Of a stretch of DNA of 23,391 nucleotides, positions 5,028 to 18,942 are shown piece after piece. The position numbers and the translations under genes are program-made. The stretch covers positions 1-23,391 of the IMG/VR virus record IMGVR_UViG_3300025701_000913; one strand, given 5' to 3'. The notes under the pieces were generated by a model. The model did not search any database. It saw only the letters and a list, made by a program, of their open reading frames with translations, and had not been told where the DNA came from. The stretch's first letter is position 1. Each line of letters starts with the position of its first letter. The stretch is from a virus.

Positions 5028-5172
5028 TAAATCGTACTCCTGGGATGTCGTATACTCTAGTTAGGTTCGATGAGCAGTTGTCGCACTCATAAGAATCTTC
5101 AGGTTCGCTTATACCCCTGATGATATCCTTATAAGTGCCACAGCTGACACACTTATAGCTATAGATAGCCAA
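4996..5172 (-). CDS. FmdB-like zinc-ribbon protein (TTG start)
   Basis: GGAGGAG 5 bases before a TTG at 5172 opens a 58-codon frame ending at TAA 4996. The product has the FmdB-type zinc-ribbon layout: (M)AIYSYKCVSCG at the start with C8 and C11, then CDNC with C30 and C33, a strand RVYDIPGVRF, and the family ending GNGFYSTDK. These are small putative regulatory zinc ribbons of unclear function; similar ones occur in many phages. The start codon is TTG, which is easily missed. It overlaps the next gene by 32 bases and follows the endolysin by 14 bases, suggesting co-transcription. Confidence 0.87.
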   Translation of the reverse strand: MAIYSYKCVSCGTYKDIIRGISEPEDSYECDNCSSNLTRVYDIPGVRFNGNGFYSTDK

Positions 5173-5186
5173 GTAAACTCCTCCTG

Positions 5187-5966
5187 TTAAGAAAGCTTAA
5201 TCTTTTGGCCAACCCTAATCAGGTTAGGATTCTTAATGCCATTAAGCTTTGATAGTGCAGAGATTGTGGTTTTATTTGCCCTAGCAATCTTACCAAGGGT
5301 GTCTCCGCTCTTAACAGTATACACCTTTGATGCTGATTTTGCAACTGCTTTTTTTGCAGCTGGCTTTGGTGCTGGTTTTTTTGCTACTGTCTTTTTTACA
5401 GCTGGCTTCTTAACTGGCTGGTGTACTGGTGCAGGAGCTGTTGGCTCCTTCTCGTCTGTCGCTACGTTTGCGTAAGCCTTAGCCTTTTCTGCAGCGATCA
5501 GTGCCTTTACAAAGCTGATTGGCTCAACAAAGCCCTTACCGTCGGCGGACCACCCGTGAGTCTTGCCCTTCCAAATTTCCCAATGAAGATGAATACCAGT
5601 TGACATTCCAGATGTCCCCATTTTTCCCAGGACAGTTCCAGGCTTAACCTTTTGTCTTGGCTTTACCTGGATGGACCCTGGCTCTAGATGTGCGTATAGA
5701 GATGTGTAGTACTCTCCGTCAATCATATGGCGGATTACAACATAGTGCCCAAATCCACCACCAGCTGCATTAGAAACCCTAGCCTTTAGAACTGTGCCCC
5801 CAGCGAAGGCTTCGATATACCATGGGGCCTTGCCTAGTCCACAGATGTCCGTTCCGTTGTGGTGCTTTCGTGTCTTCTTTACTGGGTGAATTCTCCATCC
5901 CATCTTGGAAGTAATTTTCCAAGTCTTTCCGTATGCCCCGTCAATGGGCTGTTGATACTTTGACAT
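5187..5966 (-). CDS. Endolysin: M23 metallopeptidase with C-terminal LysM
   Basis: The 259-residue protein has an M23 (lysostaphin-type) zinc endopeptidase domain at about 15-150 and a LysM peptidoglycan-binding repeat at about 215-259 ([20 protein letters not shown] start). Zinc ligands H36 and D40 (HHNGTD) and H128 of HLHWEI, with catalytic H93 (YAHL) and H126, are all present. A Lys/Ala/Pro-rich linker (about 170-213) joins them. There is no signal peptide, so release across the membrane would need a holin. It cleaves peptide cross-links of the cell wall during lysis. AAGGAG lies before the ATG at 5966. The first gene after the modification cassette, it is separated by about 10 kb from the holin candidates at 16 kb. 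Confidence 0.93.
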
Positions 5967-5997
5967 ATTGTCTCCTTATTATTTGTATGTTATAGTC

Positions 5998-6654
5998 TTA
6001 CTCTGTGCCGTCAGACATTCTTGGGTTAGCTAGGTGGTGATACCAGTGAGGCATTGAGTACCGAGTCCCCTTCGTAATTGGCATAATCTCATGTATATAG
6101 AGAAAGTTAGATGGAAAAAAGACAATGCTTCCTGCCTCTGGTTTAATTCTAACATTAGAGTGCTGAAATTCGATCTCGCCGCCATCGTAGTCATCATTAA
6201 GGTAGCTTACGGTTGAAATCAGTCTGCTACTAATACCAAGATCTTGATGAGCTGGAAGGTGTCCGCCGTCCTCATCATACCTAAGGACACCATCCATTGG
6301 TTCCTCTGACTTTACTGAGGTTCTAGCCCATGGGTAAAGCACCATGTAGTGCTCAAGTGCCTCGTCCAAAGAGCCATAAAGTGCATCTGCAATTTCGATC
6401 AGGTCATCTCTGTAGAAGTCGTGGTCGCTAATATCTTTGTGTCTCCAGATAAAGAACTTATGATTAAATGGCTTGGGCATGTGCTCATCCCACCACGGCT
6501 CCCAGTCAGTCACCATTGTCCACTGGTCTCCATGCTCTTTCCTGTTAAACTTATCGGAAAGATTCTTGACTAGTTCAACGACTTTATCTGTATTAGGTAT
6601 AATGTTCTTATAATAAACCAAACCTAGGTCTAGCACTTCAAACTGTACGCTCAT
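5998..6654 (-). CDS. 2OG-Fe(II) oxygenase, prolyl-hydroxylase-like
   Basis: The ATG at 6654 overlaps the carbamoyltransferase stop as ATGA, with AAGGTGAT just upstream; an in-frame start further up would overlap by 30 bases and is less likely. The 218-residue product has the complete Fe(II)/2-oxoglutarate site of the prolyl 4-hydroxylase type: H136 and D138 in LPAHQD, H188 in YIHEI, and R198 in KGTRYS for 2-oxoglutarate, with GGEIEF and GSIVFFPS strands. Such enzymes use O2 to hydroxylate peptides, sugars or bases. Substrate here unknown. Last gene of the cassette; translation is coupled to the carbamoyltransferase. Confidence 0.9.
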   Translation of the reverse strand: MSVQFEVLDLGLVYYKNIIPNTDKVVELVKNLSDKFNRKEHGDQWTMVTDWEPWWDEHMPKPFNHKFFIWRHKDISDHDFYRDDLIEIADALYGSLDEALEHYMVLYPWARTSVKSEEPMDGVLRYDEDGGHLPAHQDLGISSRLISTVSYLNDDYDGGEIEFQHSNVRIKPEAGSIVFFPSNFLYIHEIMPITKGTRYSMPHWYHHLANPRMSDGTE

Positions 6655-8090
6655 CTTATCACCTTCTGCCCGTAGGTCTTTTCCCACTCAATTATATCAT
6701 GCTCGTCATTTAAAAGTGGCTGACCTTTTATATTAAGGCTAGTATTTAATAGCACGGGGATGCCCGTCTCTTTATAGAATAAAGTGAGCAGCCTGTGTAA
6801 TCCTGGGTGCTGATGTCTATTTACTGTCTGTACCCTCGATGTTCCATCGATATGAACCACGCTTGGTATTAGTCTTGGCTGCTTACACCTAACCGTATAC
6901 TGCATATATGGCGAAGTTGCTGGTAGATCAAACCACTCAGATGCGTGCTCTTCTAGAACTACTGGTGCAAAGGGACGGAACAGCTCTCTCTTCTTGATTC
7001 TGTTAACCTTGTCCTTTATCTCTGGATCTCTTGGGTCAGCTAGTATGCTCCTATTCCCCAAAGCTCTTGGGCCATACTCTGCCCTGCCGTATACAACTGG
7101 TGCAACACCATCGCTTAGAATTGCATTAAGGGCTGACTCTGCTGGATACCTAGACTCCCCCAGGTTGTAACCTAAGTAGGGGTTTCTCCAGTTAAGATGT
7201 TTACCATAAGCGGCTGCAGCAGCCCCCAGAGAGCTTCCAGCATCTCCTGGATTAGGCATTATCCATACGTCTGCGAACTGACTCCAGAGCGAAGTGTTAG
7301 CTGTAGCATTAAGAGCACATCCGCCCATGAAAACTAGGTTATGCTTGCCAGTCTTTTTCTTGGCAAACTCCATAAACTCATATAGTCTATCTTCGTATAC
7401 CTTTTGAACAGCTGCTGCTATATCGTACTTATTAAGGTCCGTTACCTCAATGTCCCAGTCTACGATACCCTTGTGGAAATTATATTTTTGACCATTGATT
7501 GTGCTGAAGTATTCAGATACTTTCTTATAAAACCTTTTTGGCTTTCCATATGATGCCATGCCCATCATAATGTATTCCTCTTCGTTAGGCTTTAGGCCAA
7601 GTAGCTGGGTAAAAGCTGAGTAAAACAGGCCAAAGCTAAAGGGGTAGTTTTTCTTATAGACACCCTTGATCTTATCACCTTCTCCTACCCAGATGCTAGA
7701 TGTGTTCCACTCTCCTATAGCATCAAGAACTACGATTACTGCATCATTAAACCTGCTTGTATAGTATCCAGCAGCAGCATGTGAGTAGTGGTGACTAAAG
7801 TATTTTACTGGAACATTCTGCAAGGCTGGATGGTCTTTAAACTTTGGTTTGCCCCCACCGAAGCCACCGCTGATAGCTATTCTAGTTTTCTTTAGCATTG
7901 GGTGCTCGTAGTATGCTACCAAGTCTGGCTGGCCATACTTGAGGGCATCATCAATCAAGGCATCATTGACAAACCAGTCATTTTTTTCTTTACTGTACCT
8001 CTCCGCATGCCCTGCAAATAAGATTATATTATCTTTGATCAGAGTTACTGAAGCGTCGTGGGTAGTCTCATTTACCCCCAGGATGATCAT
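6651..8090 (-). CDS. O-carbamoyltransferase, NodU/CmcH (TobZ) family
   Basis: The 479-residue protein has both parts of NodU/CmcH/TobZ carbamoyltransferases, which make carbamoyl-adenylate from carbamoyl phosphate and ATP and transfer it to a hydroxyl of a sugar or antibiotic. The N-terminal Kae1-like half (about 1-325) has HDAS at 11-14 and HHYSHA at 100-105 (metal-binding), VVLDAIGEWNTSS, GGCALNATAN and DAGSSLGAA. The C-terminal half has YGPRALGNRSILADPRD, RPFAPVVL and VLLNTSLN. The product ends soon after GQPLLN, somewhat shorter than the roughly 540-600 residues usual for the family, losing the final strand-helix. It likely modifies a hydroxyl made or added by neighbouring enzymes. Confidence 0.93.
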   Translation of the reverse strand: MIILGVNETTHDASVTLIKDNIILFAGHAERYSKEKNDWFVNDALIDDALKYGQPDLVAYYEHPMLKKTRIAISGGFGGGKPKFKDHPALQNVPVKYFSHHYSHAAAGYYTSRFNDAVIVVLDAIGEWNTSSIWVGEGDKIKGVYKKNYPFSFGLFYSAFTQLLGLKPNEEEYIMMGMASYGKPKRFYKKVSEYFSTINGQKYNFHKGIVDWDIEVTDLNKYDIAAAVQKVYEDRLYEFMEFAKKKTGKHNLVFMGGCALNATANTSLWSQFADVWIMPNPGDAGSSLGAAAAAYGKHLNWRNPYLGYNLGESRYPAESALNAILSDGVAPVVYGRAEYGPRALGNRSILADPRDPEIKDKVNRIKKRELFRPFAPVVLEEHASEWFDLPATSPYMQYTVRCKQPRLIPSVVHIDGTSRVQTVNRHQHPGLHRLLTLFYKETGIPVLLNTSLNIKGQPLLNDEHDIIEWEKTYGQKVIR

Positions 8091-8150
8091 TAGTATATAT
8101 ACTTTCTATTCTTTAATGCTTTACGATTCTTAATTTTCCAAAGGTAGAAC

Positions 8151-9002
8151 TTAATCTTGTGTAATAGTCTTTTCATAATAACTATTATACATCATGTTGG
8201 CGTAAAAAGCATGCTGAGCTATTCCTGGATGAGAATCATCCATTGCCTTAAGAATAAAGTTTCTGTGGTCTAGTGGAATTTTATCGTTTTCATATTCAAA
8301 CAATTGTTGGTTAAAGTAGTCATTGTCGAACTTAATTATTCCATCAATGCTATTCCTAGCGTCATCATGTGACTTCGTGTCAAAGGTTGGATCCCAGGTC
8401 ATTGACACAAACCTGCCGATCTTTTTTGAATCAATCAGGTTCGCAAATGGCTGTACCCCCAAGCCAGAATCCCTTTCCAAATCTGGAAAGTTTGCGAATA
8501 CAACGTCTGGAGTTCCATAAAGCTCTATGTATTTATCCAATGTATTATAACAGTCTGTCATAGAGTACGAAGACTTGGCCAAATTAAAGTATCCAGAAAG
8601 CTTTTCTTTTTTAGAAAGCTTGTCGTAAAGAACTTTAGGCCAGGAGTAATCTTCAAACATTGCCTCACCTAGTGTTACCGAGCATCCGATGAACACAACG
8701 TGAAGCCCTTCGTGGTTGCTTTCGAACTCCTGAGACCTAAAGCCAAAGCTATTAAAGTTATATATATCATTAAGTGTTAGACCCATATCTTCTAGGTATA
8801 GGCTTGTAACATACATTCCGTAGCTTCCTGGTGTAGGATTATGACCTTCCAAGAAAGGCCTGCCTGGCAGCCCAAGAACATCGCTCTTATAGAGCTCTAT
8901 GCCATCTACTAGTTCAGAAGAGTTATCAAACTTCGCGTGGTTTACTTTATGACGCCTCATAAGGCGATCGTTTTCTAGTGGGTGCAGCTTAGTTGGCTCC
9001 AA
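8151..9002 (-). CDS. SGNH/GDSL hydrolase-like protein (copy 1)
   Basis: The TTG at 9002 has AAGGA 5 bases upstream and overlaps the upstream stop by 14 bases; an ATG at 8960 has no clear site and would leave a shorter protein. From the TTG the product is 283 residues. Block I is VVFIGCSVTLG with the nucleophile Ser, block III is NFPD in place of the usual GxND, and block V DDSHPGIAQHAFYANMMY supplies the Asp/His. SGNH enzymes are esterases or acyltransferases acting on glycans. It is closely related to the next gene upstream, so the pair is a tandem duplication. Substrate unknown; a glycan acyl group is plausible from context. Confidence 0.82.
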   Translation of the reverse strand: MEPTKLHPLENDRLMRRHKVNHAKFDNSSELVDGIELYKSDVLGLPGRPFLEGHNPTPGSYGMYVTSLYLEDMGLTLNDIYNFNSFGFRSQEFESNHEGLHVVFIGCSVTLGEAMFEDYSWPKVLYDKLSKKEKLSGYFNLAKSSYSMTDCYNTLDKYIELYGTPDVVFANFPDLERDSGLGVQPFANLIDSKKIGRFVSMTWDPTFDTKSHDDARNSIDGIIKFDNDYFNQQLFEYENDKIPLDHRNFILKAMDDSHPGIAQHAFYANMMYNSYYEKTITQD

Positions 9003-9936
9003 TGTTATCCTTAAGAAATAGTCTGTAAGCAAAGTCAGCATAGAACGCATGCTCTGCAATTCCTGGGTGAACAACATCAAAGGCACGCTCAAAGTGGTCT
9101 ATGAACTTGTGATTCTTCTGTGCCTTACACATGTCAAAGATGAACTTGTTTCTATCCTCACAACTAAATTTGTGATATGTTTCTCCCATATCACTCCTTG
9201 GGTCGTTATCATATTGGGCATAATTGCCTGAGTCCGGTGCGTCCTCGCTATCCTCGTTTGCCGAGCTATCCCAAGAAAAGGAAATTAAATTTATTTTAGA
9301 CTTCTCGCAGTATGACTCTAGCATTTGGTGCATAACCCTTATAGCAAACAGGTGACTCTCGGAAAAGCCCGAATCGATGAGCCTGCCAAAATCTGGAAAG
9401 TTAATAAATATTACATCTGGGTCCCCGACTTCTTTGATGTAGGCCAGTATTTGGGTATAGATATCTAGATGGTTTGCACCATTCATAGCAACATTATAGT
9501 ACCCAGAGACCTTGTTAGCCTCTTTAATCTTGTTGTAGGTAATCATTGGCCAAGAATATTCCTCAAACATTCCATCACCAAACGTTATGGAGCAGCCAGC
9601 AAACAAAATGTGCAGCCCGTCATGCTCCTTTTTGAAGTCATCTGAACGTAAACCGTGCCTATTAGGTCTTCCTGGAGCGACATAGATATCCTCACCCCTC
9701 ATACCGTATTTAGAAAGATTTTTATCTGTAAAATAAAAGTTGAATGGGGGGACTGGCCTGTGATCTATCTCTGAGTCAACATCTCTAGTCTGCAGCTCGC
9801 CAAAGCCCATGGCCTCTATGCGGTCAATAATGCTATCGGCATCATCGTACCAATCCTCGAACCTAAAGCCATGCTCTTTGAAAAAGTCTGATGATGCTGC
9901 TGCTGGGCTATACTTTGTTAAATCTTTTTTTGACAA
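8989..9936 (-). CDS. SGNH/GDSL hydrolase-like protein (copy 2)
   Basis: The 315-residue product shares with copy 1 the blocks LHILFAGCSITFG (nucleophile Ser), EEYSWP, SGYYNVA, DPDVIFINFPDFGR and VVHPGIAEHAFYADFAY (catalytic His with Asp just before). The start is a TTG at 9936 with only a weak GGGG upstream, 12 bases after the previous stop. SGNH hydrolases cut or transfer acyl esters, for instance O-acetyl groups on sugars. Copy 2 is longer at its N-terminus (SPAAASSDFFKEHGFRFEDW). Two divergent copies suggest two related substrates. No signal peptide, so it works inside the cell. Confidence 0.82.
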   Translation of the reverse strand: MSKKDLTKYSPAAASSDFFKEHGFRFEDWYDDADSIIDRIEAMGFGELQTRDVDSEIDHRPVPPFNFYFTDKNLSKYGMRGEDIYVAPGRPNRHGLRSDDFKKEHDGLHILFAGCSITFGDGMFEEYSWPMITYNKIKEANKVSGYYNVAMNGANHLDIYTQILAYIKEVGDPDVIFINFPDFGRLIDSGFSESHLFAIRVMHQMLESYCEKSKINLISFSWDSSANEDSEDAPDSGNYAQYDNDPRSDMGETYHKFSCEDRNKFIFDMCKAQKNHKFIDHFERAFDVVHPGIAEHAFYADFAYRLFLKDNIGAN

Positions 9937-9948
9937 CTCAGCCCCGAT

Positions 9949-10557
9949 CTAAAGATTTCTATTGGTATTTTTCATAGCTTCCCAGTCGCTAGAGTTCAGC
10001 CGAGTTCCGCCTACAAAGTCTGGATCGGCATGTTCTGGTAGGCTAGTATGCATATATAGTGCGGTATGTCTGATACCAGAAGTTACGGTAGTGATGCCAT
10101 GAATGTATTCTGACCCAGCACTAGGGAAGAAAACTGCAGAGTACTTCTTGGGCTTATATTCAAAGTCTTGGTTAGGGAAGTAGATGACTCCACCCTCGTA
10201 TTCCTCTGGATCATTTAGGTAAATTATAGTGCTCCACTCAATGAAGGGCTCTGGATCCTGGGCATCTAGGTGCAGGTCTCCCTTACTTCCAGAGCTCCAG
10301 ATAGACCCGAAAGACTTAAATACATAGATAGGGTTTACAAAGCCATTCTGCTCTTTGTGAACTTCATTAGACTTGTGTCCATACTTAATTAGCATGTCCA
10401 TCACACGCTTATTATATGGAAAGGCCGTGCCTCCAAAGCGATCAGCATAGTATTCTGGGTATGGATTTACCTCGGACGGCCTAAGCTGCTCTTCTATCAA
10501 CAGCTCTGCATCTTCGGGTGTTATAAAGTCCTCGATGATATGTATTCTGTGTCCCAC
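9949..10557 (-). CDS. 2OG-Fe(II) oxygenase, prolyl-hydroxylase-like (copy 2)
   Basis: AGGAGG lies only one base before an ATG at 10563, too close for use, but 7 bases before a GTG at 10557, so I prefer the GTG (202 residues). The catalytic set is H96-x-D98 (DLHLDA), H153 (YIHGI) and R163 (GIRH), with VIYFP and SAVFFPS strands, matching the prolyl 4-hydroxylase-like superfamily. The N-terminus (RIHIIEDFITPEDAELL) is typical of these enzymes. It lies between the glycosyltransferase and the SGNH pair, 26 bases after the former. Expected chemistry is hydroxylation using O2 and 2-oxoglutarate; the substrate is unknown. Confidence 0.88.
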   Translation of the reverse strand: MGHRIHIIEDFITPEDAELLIEEQLRPSEVNPYPEYYADRFGGTAFPYNKRVMDMLIKYGHKSNEVHKEQNGFVNPIYVFKSFGSIWSSGSKGDLHLDAQDPEPFIEWSTIIYLNDPEEYEGGVIYFPNQDFEYKPKKYSAVFFPSAGSEYIHGITTVTSGIRHTALYMHTSLPEHADPDFVGGTRLNSSDWEAMKNTNRNL

Positions 10558-10583
10558 TGTCATTCCTCCTATTTACAATTATA

Positions 10584-11459
10584 TCAGTAAATTGCTTTTG
10601 TTTTGGCAATAAATCTTTCCCCACCAAGCTCATTCATTTGTAGGGAGGTTGGGTCATACCCTACATCATTAATTTGATGAAAAAGTTTTATTGGTGGCTC
10701 ATCTATTTTAAGCAAGGACAGCCATTCCTTGCCAATATCAGTACTTAGCATATCAATCATTGTATTATAGTTGTGCTCTTTAGAAAATGGACAGTATAAG
10801 TTTTCAATTGTTCTGAGCCCTAAGTCCTCATATAGGTCGCTCGGTGCTGAGTATGTGGCAATGCCCTTTTCAAGTAGCCGCATAGACATCTTTTCCTCTT
10901 CTCCAAAATACTTTATATCTCTTGGATAGCCAGTTCTTGTAAAAGTTTCTGTAAGTCCAAACATAAAAAGTCTATCGGTCAGGTGTGACATGCCGAATGT
11001 ACTAGAGCTGCTCTCATTGTGTCCAATGAAGTAGTCGTCCAGGTTAAAAAACTCCCTTTTGCCCTTACCAGATATAAATATTGATGGATTATCATTAATA
11101 AAAGATGTGCAGTCTTCCAGCCATCCATCTCTAAGGCTTGTGTCATCTGTAAGTAATAGGGTATACTTTGCATCAAACTTTTTAGAAAAAATAGTTTCTT
11201 CTTTAAACCAGGTTGGCCCGTCTATGTGATCCCAAAATTTATGCTCATAGAAAACGTTTACTAAATTTTTAAATTTTTCTGTTCTATCCATAGGGTGCTG
11301 GTCTAAAATTGATATATGAACTGACTGAGATGTTGATGCCAGGAGTCTTTCTACTACAGCTAGAAGATTGGGATTTTTGTATGAATGTATAATTGCATTA
11401 ACTATTATTTTTTTCTCCTCTCGCTTCCCCTGTAAATTTTCTTTCTCCAGGCAAACCAT
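10584..11459 (-). CDS. Glycosyltransferase, GlcNAc-transferase-like (GT-A fold)
   Basis: The core starts at about residue 18 with a GT-A strand (IIVNAIIHSYKNPNLLAVVE) and contains HIDGPTWFKEE and LLLTDDTSLRDGWLED, like the GP-x-W and DSH...GWD blocks of Pfam Glycosyltransferase (GlcNAc)/GT60 proteins (by memory), with TDD as the likely metal motif. These transfer GlcNAc from UDP-GlcNAc, in one known case to hydroxyproline. An ATG at 11459 is the nearest standard start but overlaps the upstream gene by 55 bases with no good ribosome site. GAGGAG sits 6 bases before an ATA at 11408, which shares ATAA with the upstream stop, so true initiation may be there. Confidence 0.72.
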   Translation of the reverse strand: MVCLEKENLQGKREEKKIIVNAIIHSYKNPNLLAVVERLLASTSQSVHISILDQHPMDRTEKFKNLVNVFYEHKFWDHIDGPTWFKEETIFSKKFDAKYTLLLTDDTSLRDGWLEDCTSFINDNPSIFISGKGKREFFNLDDYFIGHNESSSSTFGMSHLTDRLFMFGLTETFTRTGYPRDIKYFGEEEKMSMRLLEKGIATYSAPSDLYEDLGLRTIENLYCPFSKEHNYNTMIDMLSTDIGKEWLSLLKIDEPPIKLFHQINDVGYDPTSLQMNELGGERFIAKTKAIY

Positions 11460-12169
11460 TTATAGTAGCCGTGAATCCTAGTTCTACGCCTCTCTGCTGC
11501 GAAGACATGCCTCTCACGGTCATCATCTGTATCTAGAACCTCCATCTCCCAGTTGTCTCTCTTGAATGGAAGCATATGTATGATTGGAGTGCCCTTGGGA
11601 ATTACCCCTCGAAAACCTTGCTTAAGGAAAAATGCTATAAAGACTGGTAGCCCCCAGATGTCTGACTCAACTATCCCAGATTGAACTGTGAATGGAAGGT
11701 CGTACCTATTCATAGGATGCGTAATTAAAACTGAATATCCTGGCGGTGTCTCATAGTACCACTGCATCTTAAATCCGTAATGTATTGGGTGGTGTCCCTC
11801 AGGTACTGGTAGTTCTACGGTGGGCCTGTGATCCAAGATCATTTGGTCGGATGTCCACCACAAGATTGGCTTGCCAGTTTCTTTATCTATATCTACGTGA
11901 AGGTCATCCTCTAGAACATAGTGATAGCCTGCAGTCATTGCATCTAAAAATGGTGGACACTGCTTCGTAGCAACCGCTGCCCCATCTGAACCTATATTAT
12001 TTACAACACCCAAAGTCTTTTCACTGTTTGACTTAAGGTGTTTAGCTAATGACTTATACCACTCTGGCACATTCCAAGATGCTGGCTCTGGAGGTACTGC
12101 TAGGCCCATTGACAATGGAGTGCTAGGGGTAAAGCTAATCTTTAGCAGATCATCATCTGAAGTAGACAC
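11405..12169 (-). CDS. Unknown beta-rich protein, paralogue A (DUF6065-like?)
   Basis: The 254-residue protein begins at a GTG that shares its last transcribed-side base with the upstream TAG; AAGGAAT lies 8 bases before it. It shares with its upstream neighbour the order VPEWY, C-x-PF-x-D-x-MTAGY, a central GYSVLITHPMNR block, a GIVESDIW strand, and the ending GFRGVIPKGTPI...PFKRDNW. Only this copy keeps HPMNRYDLPF. The family resembles one found in viruses and bacteria as DUF6065 (from memory, unchecked). No enzyme motif is visible; it may bind a ligand or sugar. The C-terminus is very basic (WRKKIYRGSERRKK). Confidence 0.78.
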   Translation of the reverse strand: MSTSDDDLLKISFTPSTPLSMGLAVPPEPASWNVPEWYKSLAKHLKSNSEKTLGVVNNIGSDGAAVATKQCPPFLDAMTAGYHYVLEDDLHVDIDKETGKPILWWTSDQMILDHRPTVELPVPEGHHPIHYGFKMQWYYETPPGYSVLITHPMNRYDLPFTVQSGIVESDIWGLPVFIAFFLKQGFRGVIPKGTPIIHMLPFKRDNWEMEVLDTDDDRERHVFAAERRRTRIHGYYKWFAWRKKIYRGSERRKK

Positions 12170-12894
12170 TACTTGTATTCCTTTTTACTTCTAAACTTAT
12201 TCTTATAGCCATTTATGAAGGTACTTCTCAAATTAAACCTTTGCTTGTCAAACAAGGACCTTGCATCTTCTGGCTCTACAAACTCTGACTGCCACTCTTC
12301 TCTTTTAAATGGAATTATCTGTGCAATTGGAGTTCCCTGCTTTATAGTGCCCTTAAAGTTTTTCCTAACCAAGAAGGATAAGTGCCCATCAGTAACAAAC
12401 TTATCAGTGTCTACGATTGCACCAAAAGCCCATAGTGGGGAATCATCTGTGTGATATGGGTTTGTATACAGCGTGCTATAGCCATCTTCTGTACCAACTG
12501 CCCATCCTGGCAAGATCCTAAAAATTTGTTTGTGATACTTCTCTGGATCTACTGGATAGTTTTCATACTGTTCTGGTGAGTGGAATGCAAATAGGTCAGC
12601 CTTCATGCTCTGGAGTTGCATAGGGATAGACCACTCAAGCTTCTCTGGATTTGTGGCATCTAAGTATATATCGCATGGTGCCATAAGCATATACCCAGCA
12701 GTCATGCCATCAAATATTGGCATGCACCTCTTTACCGTAGATGCGGCAACTCCGATGGCTGGAATCATGTCTTCGTCACCCTTATTCCCTGGCTGAGCAC
12801 GATACCATTCTGGTACGAACCTGATAGACTGTTTTGGTCTTGGAGCAAACTCGGCTGTCTCTTTACTAAAAGGATAAAAGCTAATTTTCGGCAT
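12169..12894 (-). CDS. Unknown beta-rich protein, paralogue B
   Basis: This 241-residue protein is the sister of the 11405 product: PEWYR, C-MPIFDGMTAGYMLM, EDGYSTLYTNPYHTDD, GAIVDTDKF, NFKGTIKQGTPIAQIIPFKREEW. The ATG at 12894 overlaps the upstream stop by 14 bases with a weak GAG site. In this copy the THPMNRYDLPF block reads TNPYHTDDSPL, so the putative binding site differs. The C-terminus is basic (KNKFRSKKEYK). The tandem copies have drifted far apart and probably recognise different ligands. Function unknown; context links it to hydroxylation and glycosylation. Confidence 0.78.
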   Translation of the reverse strand: MPKISFYPFSKETAEFAPRPKQSIRFVPEWYRAQPGNKGDEDMIPAIGVAASTVKRCMPIFDGMTAGYMLMAPCDIYLDATNPEKLEWSIPMQLQSMKADLFAFHSPEQYENYPVDPEKYHKQIFRILPGWAVGTEDGYSTLYTNPYHTDDSPLWAFGAIVDTDKFVTDGHLSFLVRKNFKGTIKQGTPIAQIIPFKREEWQSEFVEPEDARSLFDKQRFNLRSTFINGYKNKFRSKKEYK

Positions 12895-13570
12895 AGTATT
12901 TCTCGATTCTTTCTAATATTATATCACTAACTACAAACTCTAGATCAAAAATGGGGTCTCCTCTTCTAGGAATTCCCAGCTCAGCATCTACCATATGAGA
13001 GCCAACGTTTTTTATCTTAAATAAAACAAAGGAGGTGTTAACGTACCTCTCTGTTCCAAGCGGTGGAATGGGGAAAAAAGAATCACCCTCCATGACTACA
13101 AATGGTGACTCTTCACTTGGCTGCATAATCTTAAAGCGTGGAGACTCTTCTACAAACCATGGAATAAAAAACTTAAAGGTTTCATCAAAGCAATCATGCC
13201 TGTCTGGCATCCTTGCATTGGTAAGATAGTACTGCCGAATCCAGGTTCTATCTACGTGGTATAGGTCCTTATTATCTTTTTTAAGAAGGAACATATCGGC
13301 GTATAGGTGGTATCGAAGCCTGACAGAATTACCAGTAATGCTAACAAGAGTTGGTGGCGTTGCTATGTTTTGAACATAGTTGTTTATTGGCTTAATCGGA
13401 GAGTCTCTGAACTGTCCAGTTCGAACAGAGTCATAAGACAGCCATCTATCTACGACCATTGACTTCACAGAAATATCTAGAAAATCTGGATCCTTAGTAT
13501 TATACCAAATATCACGATTGTCCAGATGGCTCTCTGAGTCATGCAGGATTTCTTGTATATTATTTTCCAT
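12881..13570 (-). CDS. Unknown 229-aa protein, first gene of the cassette
   Basis: The ATG at 13570 lies 3 bases after the tRNA-Thr discriminator, so its ribosome site would be GGGGC from the tRNA acceptor end. The product is soluble and beta-rich after about residue 60, with aromatic blocks (VRLRYHLYADMFLL, TWIRQYYLTNARMPDRHDC, FKFFIPWFVEESP, GDSFFPIPPLG) and a C-terminal helix. FIPWFVEESP is faintly like the PEWY region of the next two genes, but I cannot claim homology. It overlaps paralogue B by 14 bases. No catalytic motif seen. Confidence 0.72.
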   Translation of the reverse strand: MENNIQEILHDSESHLDNRDIWYNTKDPDFLDISVKSMVVDRWLSYDSVRTGQFRDSPIKPINNYVQNIATPPTLVSITGNSVRLRYHLYADMFLLKKDNKDLYHVDRTWIRQYYLTNARMPDRHDCFDETFKFFIPWFVEESPRFKIMQPSEESPFVVMEGDSFFPIPPLGTERYVNTSFVLFKIKNVGSHMVDAELGIPRRGDPIFDLEFVVSDIILERIEKYYAEN

Positions 13571-13573
13571 AAG

Positions 13574-13645
13574 AGCCCCAAGTCAGGATTGAACTGACGA
13601 CCTACGCATTACAAGTGCGTTGCTCTACCACTGAGCTATCGGGGC
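13574..13645 (-). tRNA. tRNA-Thr (anticodon TGT)
   Basis: A full cloverleaf of 72 nt: acceptor GCCCCGA/TTGGGGC, D-arm GCTC/GAGC, anticodon stem ACGCA/TGCGT around loop CTTGTAA (anticodon TGT, reads ACA), and T-loop TTCAATC. No CCA is encoded. Third of three tRNAs, immediately before the 13570 gene. Confidence 0.96.
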
Positions 13646-13661
13646 CTGGTATTTCTACCAG

Positions 13662-13735
13662 CGATCTGTATGGGACTTGAACCCACGACCCCCACCGTGA
13701 CAGGGTGGTGCTCTAACCAACTGAGCTAACAGACC
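13662..13735 (-). tRNA. tRNA-Asp (anticodon GTC)
   Basis: 74 nt. Acceptor GGTCTGT/ACAGATC (one G-T pair), anticodon stem CCACC/GGTGG with loop CTGTCAC (anticodon GTC), T-loop TTCAAGT, discriminator G as expected for Asp. No encoded CCA. Middle gene of the trio. Confidence 0.96.
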
Positions 13736-13739
13736 CAAG

Positions 13740-13811
13740 CTCTCCCTCGTGGACTCGAACCACGAACCTTAGAGTTAACAGCTCTCTGCTCTGCCATTGA
13801 GCTAAGGGAGA
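13740..13811 (-). tRNA. tRNA-Asn (anticodon GTT)
   Basis: 72 nt. Acceptor TCTCCCT/AGGGAGA, D-arm GCTC/GAGC, anticodon loop CTGTTAA (anticodon GTT), T-loop TTCGAGT, discriminator G. The outer pair of the anticodon stem is G-A, so that stem has four good pairs. The 5' end is 4 bases after the stop of the lipoprotein gene, so it must be processed from the same transcript. Confidence 0.95.
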
Positions 13812-13815
13812 TCAA

Positions 13816-15063
13816 CTACTGTGAATAGTTGTCTTGTATATATACTAGCATATTTTCGTAGAAAAGGTCAACGCTTTGATCAAAGTATTTTGAGAATGCG
13901 GTCTCCCAATATGTTCCACGGCCCACGGCAGAGACAAAATCCATAACTGTGTCAATACCGAAAGTTCCTATTAAATTTTCTGCAGCCACGCCGCCAAACA
14001 CATATGCATTATAGTCTGCAATTAACTGCTGTGCGGTCTCATTGGTATAGCCCTCCAGTTTGCCGAAGATTAGTCTAACATCGTCAATAGTCATTTCTTT
14101 TGCAAAGCTCTGCAAGGTTGAATGTCCGAACCTCTGGCTCATCCTAAAGTCATGCCAGTTTCTAACTTTGCTGTTTAGTGACTTGTGGTTACTAATTCCA
14201 TAGACATCTCCAATATAAGAAGCTAAGCCTTCTGCTAGCCAAATTGGAAAGTTCGTGTGGTCTATTCCTAGCCTATAAGTTATTCCGTGAAAGTATTCGT
14301 GAGGAATGACAGAGCCCAAGAAGTCTTGCCTTGTACCAGAGTCCGCTATACAAGCATAAACTCTATTCTGAATAATATATACGAATCCGCAATATCGTCC
14401 ACTACTTGAAATCTTTACATCCTCTACAAAAGATCCTCTAGCAATTCTATCTCCGTTGTAAATTCGCATTTGATCGCCCCATGCAGCTGAGTCTTTCCTA
14501 AACAAGTATACGGTGAAGTCATCGATAACACCATATTCTTCATCCCATGTGCTGGATGCTCTGGAAAGATAAGAAACAACGTCAGAGACAATCTCTGGCT
14601 CAATGTCTTCGTGTGCTAAGACATTCTCTGGCAGAAATTTATGAGAGTTATCAAAAAGAGCTGCTACCTCGCTGTATGCCCTAGATCCAATTGGGAAGGT
14701 TTCCCCTTGCTCCACCCTAGGCGATGCCGTCTCTGCGTCATCTTCGGAGCTGGCCGTCGCTAGTGATTGAGCTGCAGAACTAGTGGTTTCTGTAGTATCA
14801 TCAGAACTGACTTTTTTGTTACCCTCTACACGTGCAAGAAGTTCCGCTGCAAGCTCCTCTTCTGCAAGAATTCTCTCCAGAGCTTCCTGGTATTCTGCAT
14901 CAGTGAGGGTGGGCGTGACAGCCGAGGACTCTGACGCAGCTTCCTCGTAGGCACTATCTACCTCTGGTTCTGTTGTAGCACAGCCAGAAAGTAGTAGAGA
15001 TGAGCTAATTAGTACTGCAAGAATTTGACTACGTGACAGCAAGGATCTCCCCCATCTTCCCAT
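13816..15063 (-). CDS. Secreted lipoprotein metallopeptidase (gluzincin-like)
   Basis: The 415-residue protein has a Sec lipoprotein signal: a basic start, hydrophobic stretch, and LLSGC lipobox with the lipidated Cys at 28. A long acidic Ser/Ala/Glu-rich linker (29-120) leads to a zinc-peptidase domain with HEYFH (255-259) and the third ligand E278 in WLAEGLASY, a gluzincin layout. C225 and C238 may form a disulfide outside the cell. It would be anchored on the outer face of the host membrane and digest proteins there. A TTG at 15042 with GGGGGAGA before it is an alternative start that still keeps the signal peptide. A 55-base overlap joins it to the gene before. Confidence 0.88.
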   Translation of the reverse strand: MGRWGRSLLSRSQILAVLISSSLLLSGCATTEPEVDSAYEEAASESSAVTPTLTDAEYQEALERILAEEELAAELLARVEGNKKVSSDDTTETTSSAAQSLATASSEDDAETASPRVEQGETFPIGSRAYSEVAALFDNSHKFLPENVLAHEDIEPEIVSDVVSYLSRASSTWDEEYGVIDDFTVYLFRKDSAAWGDQMRIYNGDRIARGSFVEDVKISSSGRYCGFVYIIQNRVYACIADSGTRQDFLGSVIPHEYFHGITYRLGIDHTNFPIWLAEGLASYIGDVYGISNHKSLNSKVRNWHDFRMSQRFGHSTLQSFAKEMTIDDVRLIFGKLEGYTNETAQQLIADYNAYVFGGVAAENLIGTFGIDTVMDFVSAVGRGTYWETAFSKYFDQSVDLFYENMLVYIQDNYSQ

Positions 15064-15230: not shown

Positions 15231-15965
15231 TTAATATGCTTTTGGCATTGGGACGTGGTGCTGTTCCCAGAACTTTTCATGTGGCATTAGGTCTGCTGCT
15301 AGGAAAAGGTCCTGAGTCATAATCTTTAGAGGAATGACGTCATAGGCAATTGTAATTCTTTCTCCTGGCCATGTCCATGGAGCCTGAGCATGCTGGTAGC
15401 CAACCATAGAAAGCACTGCCCGATTGTTCTTGTTTTCGTTTACTTTTAGAACACCATCAATATTATAGTGAGTCTCGGATGGCTCTGCATTTACAGAATA
15501 GTATCCGTGAAATGCTGGAACCTTATAGTTTGGATCTAGGTGATCATGCCAGTTTAGCTTTGATCCCTTCTCTATACTATTAATGTTGAACCAGGCTGCA
15601 GTCATCCATTGCTCAGAGTTGTAATCAATCTCATAGTATTCACAGGCTTCCTTGGTCATGTCCACTACTGCGGAAAACAATTCGTGCATGAATGGGTAGT
15701 ACATCTGCCAGGCATTATACTCTCTTGACTTAATCGTAGATGCTGACTTAGAGTAAGTGAAGATATCCAATCCCTCATCAAATGGTTGGATACCTATCAT
15801 CTCACGATTTGCAATCCTGTCGTACTCTAGCTTAAGGGTCTCTGCGGTTTGCTCTAGGTCATTGTCCAAAAACCTTTCAAAAAACTTTTGTGGCTTTATG
15901 TTTTTATCAAAGTTCCACTCCTGTGGCAGGGCAGACCCTTTATAGTGCTGCTCTTTGCGATCCAT
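15231..15965 (-). CDS. 2OG-Fe(II) oxygenase (copy 3, distinct subfamily)
   Basis: The 244-residue protein carries the Fe(II)/2-oxoglutarate set: WHDHLD (H142-x-D144; H140 nearby), H192 in VGYQHAQAP, and R203 in GERITIAYD. The Asn/Trp-rich sequence around AWFNINSIEKGSKLNWHDH is the form seen in the phage and cyanobacterial 2OG-FeII_Oxy_5-like group (from memory). It differs strongly from the other two oxygenases here, so it likely acts on another substrate. It starts at 15965 and is driven by the promoter at 16001-16029. A 5' leader of about 30 bases contains GAAAGAGAG before the ATG. Confidence 0.87.
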   Translation of the reverse strand: MDRKEQHYKGSALPQEWNFDKNIKPQKFFERFLDNDLEQTAETLKLEYDRIANREMIGIQPFDEGLDIFTYSKSASTIKSREYNAWQMYYPFMHELFSAVVDMTKEACEYYEIDYNSEQWMTAAWFNINSIEKGSKLNWHDHLDPNYKVPAFHGYYSVNAEPSETHYNIDGVLKVNENKNNRAVLSMVGYQHAQAPWTWPGERITIAYDVIPLKIMTQDLFLAADLMPHEKFWEQHHVPMPKAY

Positions 15966-16309: not shown

Positions 16310-16486
16310 TTACTCCTTAGGGTTTCTTATTCTGAACGTAATGATCCAAACTGCCAATGTTACTAGGATCAATGTTCCAGTTACATCACGAGCTGTGCCT
16401 TCAAGTACTAGCCATGCTACTACCATACCCAGCAGTGTCCAGGCTTGGTCAATCAAGTCCCTGAACAATTCTTTTAAGAATTTCAT
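16310..16486 (-). CDS. Small membrane protein, 58 aa, holin-associated
   Basis: The ATG at 16486 overlaps the surface-protein stop as ATGA, with AAGGAG 6 bases upstream. The 58-residue product has two hydrophobic helices at about 16-28 and 37-51 (AWTLLGMVVAWLVLEG, LILVTLAVWIITF) with basic ends and terminal RIRNPKE. The TAA at 16310 lies 2 bases before the holin-like start. It is probably a second holin or a holin regulator. It was easily missed because it is short and nested between coupled genes. Confidence 0.85.
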   Translation of the reverse strand: MKFLKELFRDLIDQAWTLLGMVVAWLVLEGTARDVTGTLILVTLAVWIITFRIRNPKE

Positions 16487-18942
16487 TTTATTCTCCTTGT
16501 CGATGCGGCAGCTGCTGCACTTACTCCTGCAGAAGCTGCTGTTGCTGTTGCTAGCTGTGCTACTTGTCCAACGATAACTGCAGCAACGACAGTCTCCTCA
16601 GATCTTTCTCTTTGCTCTGGTGACATATCTGCACCAACGTTACCTAAATCATTTAACACGTTTAGGACTTCTCCAGCTACTGCACCAAGCACTGGTATAG
16701 CTGCTAATTCTTCTGATAGTTCTGGATCATCTGCCTCTGCTAGCACTGCTAGGATTTCAAGGGCTGCGACATACTCTTCCGAATCTTTTTCTACTGAGGC
16801 AAACACTTCGTTGACCACCTGAGTTATCTGAGCTACCTGTGTTGTAGTTAGATTACGAGGCTCTTCAATCTTTGAGATTTCTCTAACAACTTCTTTTACC
16901 TCGGCAGCTTCCAAAGGAACCTCTAGCTCTACAGCTTCTTTGCCTTCCAGTGCAGCTTCTGCCTCTAGCACTCGCTGTGCCTCCAGCCTTGCAGCTTCTT
17001 CAGCCTTGGCTAATGCATCTGCTTTTGCTTTTGCATCAGCGGTGGCTTTAGCCTTGGCATCTGCCTCTGCTTTTGCTAGTGCAAGCCTGTCTGCTTCTAC
17101 CTTAGCTTCTGCGTCTGCCTTGGCTTTTGCTTGTGCAACTGCTAGAGCTGCAGCTGCATCTGCTTTGGCCTTAGCTTCCTCCTCAAGTCTGGCTGCTTCT
17201 GCTGCTTCTGCTGCTTCTGCTGCTGCTTCTGCTGCTGCTTTTTCTGCTTCTGCTGCTGCTTTTTCTGCAGCAATTCTATCTGCCTCTGCCTTGGCATCAG
17301 CGATTGCCTTTTGCTTGGCGGCTTCTTCTGCAGCCTTAGCCGCTGCTTCTGCTGCTGCTACCCTGTCTGCTTCAGCCTTTATGGCTGCTTGCCTAGCTGC
17401 CTCTGCGGCTGCAGCTGCTTGTCTATCTGCTTCCGCCTGTGCTGCTGCCTGGGCATCGGCCTCTGCTTGTTTTGCTGCCAGCCTATCTGCTTCTGCTTGT
17501 TCTGCGGCTGCTTGATCTGCTGCTGCTTTTTCTGCAGCTATCCTTTCCGCTTCGGCTTGGGCAAGCTCTTCTTCGGAAGGTCCAGCAACTGAAACCATTA
17601 TGTTTGCTACTGGCTCTGACCATACATAAATCCTATTGTCATTATCATCTGCACGAATCTTAAATAGGTACTCAGTGTCAAATCCACCAGTATTCTCAAA
17701 GTTTGAGGCTGAGATAGTGCCATAGGTATTTGTGGTTGTGATCGCCCATCCAGAATCTGCAGTGTTCCAGGCTATTACGTAGTAGTTGAGGTATGCAGTT
17801 TCATTAACCACTGATGCGTCCCAAGTTAAACTTACGGATCCATCCTGATTAACAGTTACAGAAAGATTGGTTGGTGCAGATATTGATGGCTCTGGTGGTG
17901 GTGGGACACTAGAGGTATTGTTTATAGCGTAATACTCTGCACCCTCACGTGCCGCTAGGGTGTCTGTATACGAAGTGCCGCCTTCGTTAGAGCGAATAAA
18001 AGTTCCGACTTCGTCCCATGAGTTGCTAGAAATATTGGCACCTACCTGAGTGTAGACAGTTCCAACTCTTACATTGAGGCTGATGGCAGTTGTATTTGTC
18101 TTAAAGGTATTGCCAGTAATGGTGTTGTTGATATGAGGAGCTGTGTAGTAGCTGTCCCAAGCTGGCCAATAGTTAGAAGCGTTAATGGCAGTTGTATTGT
18201 TCTCAAAGGTTGATCCAGTCACCCTGTGCTTGTTTAGTCCACGCATCAGAAACGCTGTAGAGTTGTTTGTAAATACAGAATCAGCCACAAGAATTGTTCG
18301 CTCGCCATAGATAGCTGTGTTGTTGCTATCAAATATTGAATTGGAAGCATGAATCCTGTTGTCATAGGCATTGTCATCTTCTGATGGGGTGCTTGGAGTG
18401 CCTCCATGATTAGAGAATAGTGCGGTGGTGTTTCCTGTGAACGTTCCATAGTTTATGTATATGTATGATCCACCCTCTTTGGTAGCAATGGCTGTCGTAC
18501 TTGATGTAACGGTGACGTTATTAACATATACCGTCCCCCTTATCAGCCAAATAGCAGAACCAGCTTGCCCGCTAGAGTTATACATGTTGCTAAAGGTTAG
18601 ACCGCCTATGGTCATGTTCTTGCCCTGAAGAACCAATCCCGAATAGAGATCTCCCCCGTCAATGGCTAGGTTTGCCTCTCCTGGTCCCTCTATAGTAACA
18701 TTACGGGTGATACCTGGTAGGCTAGATGCTAGGTTTATTGTACCGCTAACGCCAAAAGTAATCTTATCGAACGTAAGGCCAGCATTTGACTCTGCAATGG
18801 CCCATCTAAGAGTACCCTCTGTTCCATCGTCCTCTAGGGATGTTACGACAATACTGTCTACAGCGTGGGCAGGTTCGAGCACGCCAAATATAGGCAAGAA
18901 TGCCAATGAAAGTGCTGCGAACGCACGTAATGACGTTTTAAT
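16483..18942 (-). CDS. Exported surface protein: beta-helix, Fn3, coiled coil, C-terminal anchor (AUU start)
   Basis: No ATG/GTG/TTG sits behind the perfect AGGAGG at 18948-18953, but an in-frame ATT lies 5 bases after it, and reading from there completes a Sec signal peptide: KTSLR, hydrophobic core, then EPAHA before VDS. A TTG at 18906 would lose its basic start. From the ATT it is 819 residues: parallel beta-helix repeats (about 40-340; NNT/NST-rich), a Fn3 domain (350-450), an Ala-rich coiled coil of AEADR-x-AA repeats (454-664), and a final hydrophobic segment then STRRIK, likely an anchor. Probably a cell-surface adhesin-like or glycan-binding protein. Preceded by a terminator and a TATAAT. 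Confidence 0.82.
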   Translation of the reverse strand: MKTSLRAFAALSLAFLPIFGVLEPAHAVDSIVVTSLEDDGTEGTLRWAIAESNAGLTFDKITFGVSGTINLASSLPGITRNVTIEGPGEANLAIDGGDLYSGLVLQGKNMTIGGLTFSNMYNSSGQAGSAIWLIRGTVYVNNVTVTSSTTAIATKEGGSYIYINYGTFTGNTTALFSNHGGTPSTPSEDDNAYDNRIHASNSIFDSNNTAIYGERTILVADSVFTNNSTAFLMRGLNKHRVTGSTFENNTTAINASNYWPAWDSYYTAPHINNTITGNTFKTNTTAISLNVRVGTVYTQVGANISSNSWDEVGTFIRSNEGGTSYTDTLAAREGAEYYAINNTSSVPPPPEPSISAPTNLSVTVNQDGSVSLTWDASVVNETAYLNYYVIAWNTADSGWAITTTNTYGTISASNFENTGGFDTEYLFKIRADDNDNRIYVWSEPVANIMVSVAGPSEEELAQAEAERIAAEKAAADQAAAEQAEADRLAAKQAEADAQAAAQAEADRQAAAAAEAARQAAIKAEADRVAAAEAAAKAAEEAAKQKAIADAKAEADRIAAEKAAAEAEKAAAEAAAEAAEAAEAARLEEEAKAKADAAAALAVAQAKAKADAEAKVEADRLALAKAEADAKAKATADAKAKADALAKAEEAARLEAQRVLEAEAALEGKEAVELEVPLEAAEVKEVVREISKIEEPRNLTTTQVAQITQVVNEVFASVEKDSEEYVAALEILAVLAEADDPELSEELAAIPVLGAVAGEVLNVLNDLGNVGADMSPEQRERSEETVVAAVIVGQVAQLATATAASAGVSAAAAASTRRIK
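16950..17580 (-). repeat. Ala-codon-rich repeat region (coiled coil of the surface protein)
   Basis: Imperfect heptad-like repeats such as AEADRLAAK, AEADAQAAA and AEAEKAAAE occupy about 210 codons. The plus strand shows repeats of ctgcttctg/gctgctt. They are prone to slippage and length changes, so the length may vary between phages. Confidence 0.85.

What the first reader, a model, noticed from the sequence alone, without database searches (positions are those of the whole stretch)
5998..13570. Nine-gene coupled cassette: hydroxylases, glycosyltransferase, carbamoyltransferase, SGNH pair and unknown paralogues
Seen: the genes run without real gaps, several overlapping by 1-55 bases. Two enzymes have full HxD...H...R Fe(II)/2-oxoglutarate sites, one is a GT-A glycosyltransferase, one a NodU/CmcH carbamoyltransferase, two are SGNH-like, and three are unrecognised. 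Known: GT60-type GlcNAc transferases can add sugar to hydroxyproline made by a prolyl 4-hydroxylase (Skp1 in Dictyostelium); carbamoyl and acyl groups decorate sugar hydroxyls. Inferred: a hydroxylate, glycosylate and decorate pathway in a phage, acting on a virion protein, a host protein or a modified base. The oxygenase at 15231 may belong to it.
Basis: partly seen in the sequence, partly recalled or inferred. Interest (0 to 1): 0.78.

Follow-up and report, generated by a model that had tools for sequence, protein, structure and literature searches.

The report
Phage hydroxylase-glycosyltransferase cassette with dUTPase-fold trio
Many uncultured aquatic phages carry the same tightly packed set of genes, which looks like a machine that hydroxylates a target (probably a phage tail protein), attaches a sugar and decorates it, and that includes three puzzling proteins built on the fold of the DNA-precursor enzyme dUTPase.

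Summary
All nine genes exist and are tightly packed. Both hydroxylases keep HxD...H...R; the carbamoyltransferase and SGNH pair keep residues conserved across relatives. The GT is a diverged relative of GT60 (PF11397).

The three "unrecognised" genes are the main result. Two (DUF6065-like, phrog_7084; "D") are predicted to have a dUTPase fold but lack dUTPase motifs 2 and 5, so are probably not dUTPases. The third ("U") is probably a more diverged member of the same superfamily.

In 41 of 41 non-redundant viral loci carrying U, the next gene is D on the same strand, with a GT and a hydroxylase within 7 kb. Carbamoyltransferase (31/41), SGNH (20/41) and a second GT60 are add-ons. U has no match in 50,697 phage records.

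Best reading: a hydroxylate-glycosylate-decorate module with an inferred dUTPase-fold heterotrimer as scaffold or adaptor; U and GT evolve fastest. A virion tail protein is the likeliest target: in one phage group the block lies inside the tail module. DNA modification is less likely: no hydroxymethylase, C5-methylase or TET/JBP over cut-off in 14 related records. Target and chemistry are untested.

The parts
12881..13570 (-). U229: first gene of the core block; diverged dUTPase-superfamily protein
   Evidence: No family hit. AlphaFold pLDDT 91; best VIA Z 5.4, first 44 listed entries all dUTPase/dCTP deaminase superfamily; profile match to D E=8e-5; herpesvirus dUTPase E 4.5e-4 in BFVD
12169..12894 (-). 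D6065a: phrog_7084 protein, predicted dUTPase fold without motifs 2 and 5
   Evidence: phrog_7084 E=4e-41; AlphaFold pLDDT 80; VIA Z 10.5 to dUTPase; D profile vs E. coli Dut E=1.6e-4; motif counts
11405..12169 (-). D6065b: paralogue of D6065a (31% identical)
   Evidence: phrog_7084 E=3e-34; DUF6065 E=0.01, below cut-off; alignment
10584..11459 (-). GT: diverged GT60-like (PF11397) glycosyltransferase
   Evidence: PF00535 E=0.01; core GTs of related phages over the PF11397 cut-off; invariant D105, W113, E187 in four close relatives
9949..10563 (-). OG1: Fe(II)/2OG oxygenase, prolyl-4-hydroxylase type
   Evidence: PF13640 E=3.5e-7, over cut-off; H98, D100, H155, R165 conserved 96-100% in 51 representatives
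8989..9936 (-). SGNH1: SGNH/GDSL hydrolase or acyltransferase
   Evidence: PF00657 E=0.0024, below cut-off; Ser116, Asp287, His290 invariant in 46 representatives
8151..9092 (-). SGNH2: paralogue of SGNH1 (start uncertain)
   Evidence: 30% identical to SGNH1 with the same GCS and DxxH motifs
6651..8090 (-). CarbT: NodU/TobZ-type O-carbamoyltransferase
   Evidence: PF02543 7e-40, PF16861 2e-53; closest solved NovN, GdmN, TobZ
5998..6687 (-). OG2: second P4H-type Fe(II)/2OG oxygenase
   Evidence: PF13640 6e-17; closest solved PiuC, P4H, LH3, prolyl 3-hydroxylase
15231..15965 (-). OG3: probable HxH-type oxygenase-like protein; associated, not core
   Evidence: No Pfam hit. HDH, distal H and R conserved in most relatives; family occurs inside the block in L150-L165

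Best explanation
The conserved block U-D-D-GT-hydroxylase encodes a coupled modification machine. Inferred steps: (1) a protein-hydroxylase-type 2OG oxygenase (OG1, with OG2 and OG3) puts a hydroxyl on a side chain of a target protein; (2) the GT60-like GT attaches a sugar to that hydroxyl, as in the eukaryotic Skp1 pathway; (3) in many phages, including this one, a carbamoyltransferase and SGNH enzymes, and elsewhere a second GT60, decorate the sugar. U, Da and Db, paralogous dUTPase-fold proteins whose D members lack dUTPase motifs 2 and 5, most likely form a heterotrimer (dUTPases are homotrimers) that no longer hydrolyses dUTP and serves as scaffold, adaptor or ligand-binding subunit. U and GT, the fastest-evolving members, probably set acceptor and donor specificity. 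The likeliest target is a virion tail or adhesin protein. Shown: gene content, conserved linkage, catalytic residues, predicted folds, differential divergence. Inferred: the reactions, their order, the heterotrimer and the target.
For: Fixed order, same strand, overlapping or close genes in 41/41 non-redundant loci across different genomic settings. Hydroxylase, SGNH and carbamoyltransferase residues conserved. OG2's solved relatives include protein hydroxylases (P4H, LH3, prolyl 3-hydroxylase); CarbT's are sugar or antibiotic O-carbamoyltransferases. Core GT relatives over the PF11397 cut-off and second GT60 genes in cassettes. dUTPase fold of D and, more weakly, U. Tail context: the block lies between tail-fibre-like and other late genes in L150-L165, next to a GXP-repeat tail protein in six of them; D relatives lie beside tail-fibre-like genes and 2OG oxygenases in other phages and beside the receptor-binding region of HF2-type haloviruses (PMC7230728). 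U and GT diverge fastest.
Against: No reaction, complex or modified protein has been seen. In the window's own group the cassette is about 20 kb from the tail genes (G001: tail region about 3-23 kb, cassette 46-54 kb). Most target candidates have no collagen-like repeats. The window GT itself has no significant GT60 hit. U's dUTPase-like fold is a moderate match only (Z 5.4). Solo D genes next to RNR or thymidylate synthase genes leave a nucleotide role open.
Confidence: 0.45

Rival explanations
1. Host-directed modification: the module glycosylates and carbamoylates a host surface or secreted polymer or protein (for example to block superinfection), rather than the virion.
For: The cassette's neighbours in the window are a signal-peptide-like Fn3/repeat protein and a lipoprotein-like protein, both as variable as the cassette. 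A close relative carries GT61, PIG-L deacetylase, nucleotidyltransferase, UDP-sugar dehydrogenase, epimerase and a second carbamoyltransferase.
Against: In another phage group the block sits inside the tail module. None of the cassette ORFs has an obvious signal peptide or membrane anchor by eye (no predictor was run).
Confidence: 0.22
2. DNA hypermodification: the oxygenases hydroxylate a base in phage DNA, the GT and carbamoyltransferase decorate it, and the dUTPase-fold proteins handle the nucleotide precursor.
For: 2OG oxygenase, GT and carbamoyltransferase together with a nucleotide-enzyme fold near RNR genes; OG2 matches Tet_JBP weakly (E=0.012).
Against: No Tet_JBP match over cut-off, no thymidylate synthase/hydroxymethylase family and no C5-methylase in 14 related records, several over 100 kb; controls rang for the last two. 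D lacks motifs 2 and 5. OG2's solved relatives are protein-hydroxylase types. The records may be incomplete, and a JBP-like route acting on thymine in DNA would need neither methylase nor hydroxymethylase.
Confidence: 0.13
3. The dUTPase-fold genes are simply the phages' dUTPases or nucleotide-pool enzymes, co-transcribed with an unrelated glycan cassette.
For: No canonical dUTPase (PF00692) over cut-off in 15 related IMG/VR records; solo D genes lie next to RNR or thymidylate synthase genes; an acidic motif-3-like pair is kept.
Against: RSG 0/138 and motif 5 essentially absent. HF2 and HJTV-2 have D as well as a PF00692-family enzyme. U-D-D stays with GT and hydroxylase in all 41 loci, hard to explain for an unlinked function.
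Confidence: 0.12
4. A small-molecule pathway: the cassette tailors a metabolite made or taken up by the infected cell.
For: CarbT's closest solved relatives are antibiotic carbamoyltransferases (NovN, GdmN, TobZ).
Against: No scaffold-making gene (PKS, NRPS or obvious RiPP precursor) was seen among the window ORFs; CarbT is missing from 10 of 41 blocks; tail-module location in another group.
Confidence: 0.05

Closest known systems
Skp1 prolyl-hydroxylation/glycosylation pathway of Dictyostelium and Toxoplasma (PMC3515798)
   Same: A prolyl-4-hydroxylase-type 2OG oxygenase paired with a GT60-type GlcNAc transferase; the GT follows hydroxylation of the acceptor.
   Different: Eukaryotic cytoplasmic oxygen-sensing pathway with a known acceptor; no dUTPase-fold proteins, carbamoyltransferase or SGNH. 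The phage acceptor is unknown and the window GT is only a distant GT60 relative.
Mimivirus and LH3 collagen lysine hydroxylation and glycosylation (PMC9546862)
   Same: Virus-encoded 2OG hydroxylation followed by glycosylation of a protein; OG2 has a weak LH3 match.
   Different: Giant eukaryotic viruses with collagens; different GT families and lysine rather than an unknown residue; no dUTPase-fold partners.
Phage virion glycosylation, e.g. mycobacteriophages (PMC11256854 abstract suggests it for Maravista)
   Same: Actinobacterial phages encoding glycosyltransferases thought to act on their own virion proteins.
   Different: No 2OG hydroxylase/GT60 pair or dUTPase-fold trio is described there, as far as searched.
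Herpesvirus dUTPase-related proteins and the inactive BIV dUTPase-related protein (PMC11599850, PMC4261571)
   Same: dUTPase-fold proteins without dUTPase activity, put to other uses.
   Different: Viruses of animals, other functions; no link to hydroxylases or glycosyltransferases.
NodU/TobZ/NovN O-carbamoyltransferases
   Same: Both domains present (PF02543, PF16861); family chemistry is carbamoylation of sugar or antibiotic hydroxyls.
   Different: Shorter (479 aa), substrate unknown, part of a phage block; the same type is already known in phages as phrog_1601.

Membership tests
Fe(II)/2OG oxygenase, P4H type (PF13640): OG1, OG2 | Family score over cut-off and HxD...H metal triad with 2OG-binding R | tested here: met
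   31.5 and 62.8 bits against cut-off 27; residues conserved 96-100% in 51 representatives
Fe(II)/2OG oxygenase, P4H type (PF13640): OG1, OG2 | Hydroxylates a protein side chain | not testable with these tools
   Needs an enzyme assay or mass spectrometry
GT60 / PF11397 (window GT) | Profile score over the family cut-off | tested here: inconclusive
   Window GT: no PF11397 hit. Core GTs of G010, G019 and G021 over cut-off; L109 and L162 core GTs E 0.003-0.006, below cut-off
O-carbamoyltransferase (NodU/TobZ) | Both domains present over cut-off | tested here: met
   PF02543 137.9 bits, PF16861 180.8 bits
SGNH hydrolase superfamily | Catalytic Ser and DxxH | tested here: met
   S116, D287, H290 invariant in 46 representatives; the Pfam score itself is below cut-off
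DUF6065 (PF19541) | Profile score over cut-off | tested here: not met
   D6065b 15.8 bits against 26.6; D6065a no hit. Both are phrog_7084
dUTPase superfamily (fold), D6065a | dUTPase-like fold | tested here: met
   Predicted model: VIA Z 10.5, 119 residues, rmsd 2.5, all 50 listed entries dUTPases
dUTPase superfamily (fold), U229 | dUTPase-like fold | tested here: inconclusive
   Best Z 5.4 but first 44 listed entries all of the superfamily; profile match to D E=8e-5; none to Dut directly
dUTPase (enzyme), D6065 | Motif 2 (RSG) and C-terminal motif 5 | tested here: not met
   RSG in 0 of 138 D proteins; motif-5-like pattern in 1 of 138
dUTPase (enzyme), D6065 | Hydrolyses dUTP | not testable with these tools
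   Needs an enzyme assay
TET/JBP DNA oxygenase | PF12851 score over cut-off | tested here: not met
   OG2 15.2 bits against 34.9; 0 of 14 related records over cut-off
Skp1-type hydroxylation/glycosylation pathway | Sugar attached to hydroxyproline of an acceptor protein | not testable with these tools
   Acceptor unknown; needs mass spectrometry

The most novel reading that the evidence does not exclude
A previously undescribed phage protein-modification system in which a heterotrimer of catalytically retired dUTPase-fold subunits presents the acceptor or the nucleotide sugar to a 2OG hydroxylase and a GT60-like transferase, giving phage virions hydroxylation-dependent, carbamoylated O-glycans: a prokaryotic-virus counterpart of the Skp1 and collagen pathways.
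Probability: 0.27. Interest if true: 0.85.

Novelty: new variant of a known kind. Interest (0 to 1): 0.64.

Why it matters
It gives a specific, testable role for some of the many unexplained 2OG oxygenases of environmental phages by tying one set to a GT60-like transferase in a fixed gene block. It puts a fold on phrog_7084/DUF6065-like proteins, a family of unknown function, and finds dUTPase-fold paralogues in an unexpected setting. If the target is the tail, it would be hydroxylation-dependent glycosylation of phage virions, with likely effects on host recognition. The hypervariable island between near-identical flanks suggests strong diversifying selection.

Tried and rejected
The SGNH alignment was too divergent for a collection scan. 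PDB sequence searches with GT, SGNH and D profiles gave nothing useful. A collagen-like tail protein as the general target was not kept: GXP repeats lie next to the block in only six loci. A defence-system reading has no support: PADLOC gave only a generic '2OG, CRISPR-associated' model. Promoter and terminator scans were at chance level. D as the phages' dUTPase was not kept as the main reading because motifs 2 and 5 are missing. Adjacency of second GT60 genes to hydroxylases elsewhere in the genomes (e.g. G002, G012, G021) was seen, but no null model was computed, so it is not used as proof. DUF6065 is named in no paper of the library. Hits of D in cellular genome bins were mostly phage fragments, or solitary genes in gammaproteobacterial MAGs without cassette neighbours. 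E. coli Dut was first fetched at wrong coordinates (corrected).
Full report
What was checked. The window is a 23,391-base virus record with nearly all genes on the minus strand: terminase, NrdI and ribonucleotide reductase on one side, WhiB-like, SNase-like and M23/LysM genes on the other (the first five named from sequence by eye). The WhiB-like gene and a tRNA-Asn similar to that of Streptomyces phages point to an actinobacterial host; this was not tested further.

What each gene is. OG1 and OG2 pass PF13640 and keep HxD...H...R; OG2's solved relatives are PiuC, bacterial prolyl 4-hydroxylase, LH3 and prolyl 3-hydroxylase. CarbT is a two-domain O-carbamoyltransferase closest to NovN, GdmN and TobZ. 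The SGNH pair keeps Ser and DxxH in all 46 representatives. The GT is weak alone, but core GTs of three related phages exceed the PF11397/GT60 cut-off, and second GT60 genes follow CarbT in several cassettes.

The unknown three. D6065a and D6065b are phrog_7084 proteins. An AlphaFold model of D6065a from 31 sequences (pLDDT 80) matches dUTPases: Foldseek best E 6e-3, VIA Z 10.5 over 119 residues with all 50 listed entries dUTPases. Independently, the D profile matches an E. coli Dut profile over motifs 3 and 4 (E=1.6e-4; unrelated cassette families 0.37 or worse). An acidic motif-3-like pair is kept in 137 of 138 D proteins and GTPxxQ in nearly all, but RSG (motif 2) is in none and a motif-5-like pattern in one, so these are probably not dUTPases. 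U229 matches no family. Its model is confident (pLDDT 91). The best PDB match is only Z 5.4, within the range of common arrangements, yet the first 44 listed entries all belong to the dUTPase/dCTP-deaminase superfamily; a viral-structure search finds a herpesvirus dUTPase at E 4.5e-4; and the U profile matches D (E=8e-5, controls 0.16 or worse). I take U as a diverged third member, with moderate confidence. The heterotrimer is inferred from the known trimeric nature of dUTPases and the constant company of the three genes; it was not tested.

Conservation of the block. Scans with D, U and GT brought in about 160 loci, with some records represented more than once. After collapsing U to 85% identity, all 41 loci with enough flank have D as the next gene on the same strand and a GT and a hydroxylase within 7 kb; CarbT is in 31 and SGNH in 20. 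All 41 come from scans with D, U or GT as bait, none of which required the other genes. The block sits in at least three settings: window type, after the terminase/RNR region; after LysM-c7-CarbT; and between tail-fibre-like and other late genes, with extra OG3 copies. U has no match in 50,697 phage records.

Evolutionary pattern. Against its closest long relative (G001) the window is 97.7 and 98.0% identical in DNA at its two ends, but 68-72% or unalignable across most of about 4.5-18.9 kb, except 87.5% at 5169-8190. Across 42 blocks, U and GT diverge fastest, and D, OG1 and CarbT slowest. This suggests constant chemistry with variable recognition; it is not a formal test of selection.

Target. 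For a virion tail target: the block's place inside the tail module in one group, D relatives next to tail-fibre-like genes and 2OG oxygenases in other phages, and D beside the receptor-binding region of HF2-type haloviruses (PMC7230728). Against: in the window's own group the block is far from the tail genes. Against DNA: no Tet_JBP over cut-off, no thymidylate synthase/hydroxymethylase family and no C5-methylase in 14 related records, with the caveat that records may be incomplete. A host-surface target is not excluded; a relative carries further sugar genes.

Verdict. The combination of a GT60-like/hydroxylase pair with dUTPase-fold paralogues was not found described in the papers searched. 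Function is inferred, not shown.

Noticed in passing
L014-L042 (e.g. L042:7724-9052, L023:7251-9029): A tail-like Fn3 protein two or fewer genes upstream of the solo D gene carries a long run of Gly-Ala-Phe repeats, (GAF)n ending in GAY, in at least 19 loci.
   Followed up: no
L152:10649-11794, L154, L159:11371-12552, L161, L164, L165: A tail-like protein downstream of the block's hydroxylases has short collagen-like Gly-X-Pro runs, the position that collagen prolyl 4-hydroxylases modify.
   Followed up: partly
L043, L044, L045, L014-L042: Solo D genes lie near ribonucleotide reductase or thymidylate synthase genes in haloviruses and in one aquatic phage group.
   Followed up: partly
L010's record (G004), about 42-47 kb: Six Fe(II)/2OG oxygenase genes of the PF13640 family lie close together, nine in the whole record.
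   Followed up: no
L048 (relative G001, 59-69 kb): A second sugar cluster: GT61, nucleotidyltransferase, PIG-L deacetylase, second carbamoyltransferase, UDP-sugar dehydrogenase and epimerase. The window's left edge (2-259) looks like the start of the GT61 gene.
   Followed up: partly
window 13816-15063 and 16483-18906: A lipoprotein-like protein with an HExxH-like motif and a signal-peptide-like protein with an Fn3 match and Ala/Glu/Lys-rich repeats; both as variable between close relatives as the cassette.
   Followed up: no
window 13573-13811: Three tRNA genes (Thr-TGT, Asp-GTC, Asn-GTT) sit directly upstream of the block on the same strand.
   Followed up: no
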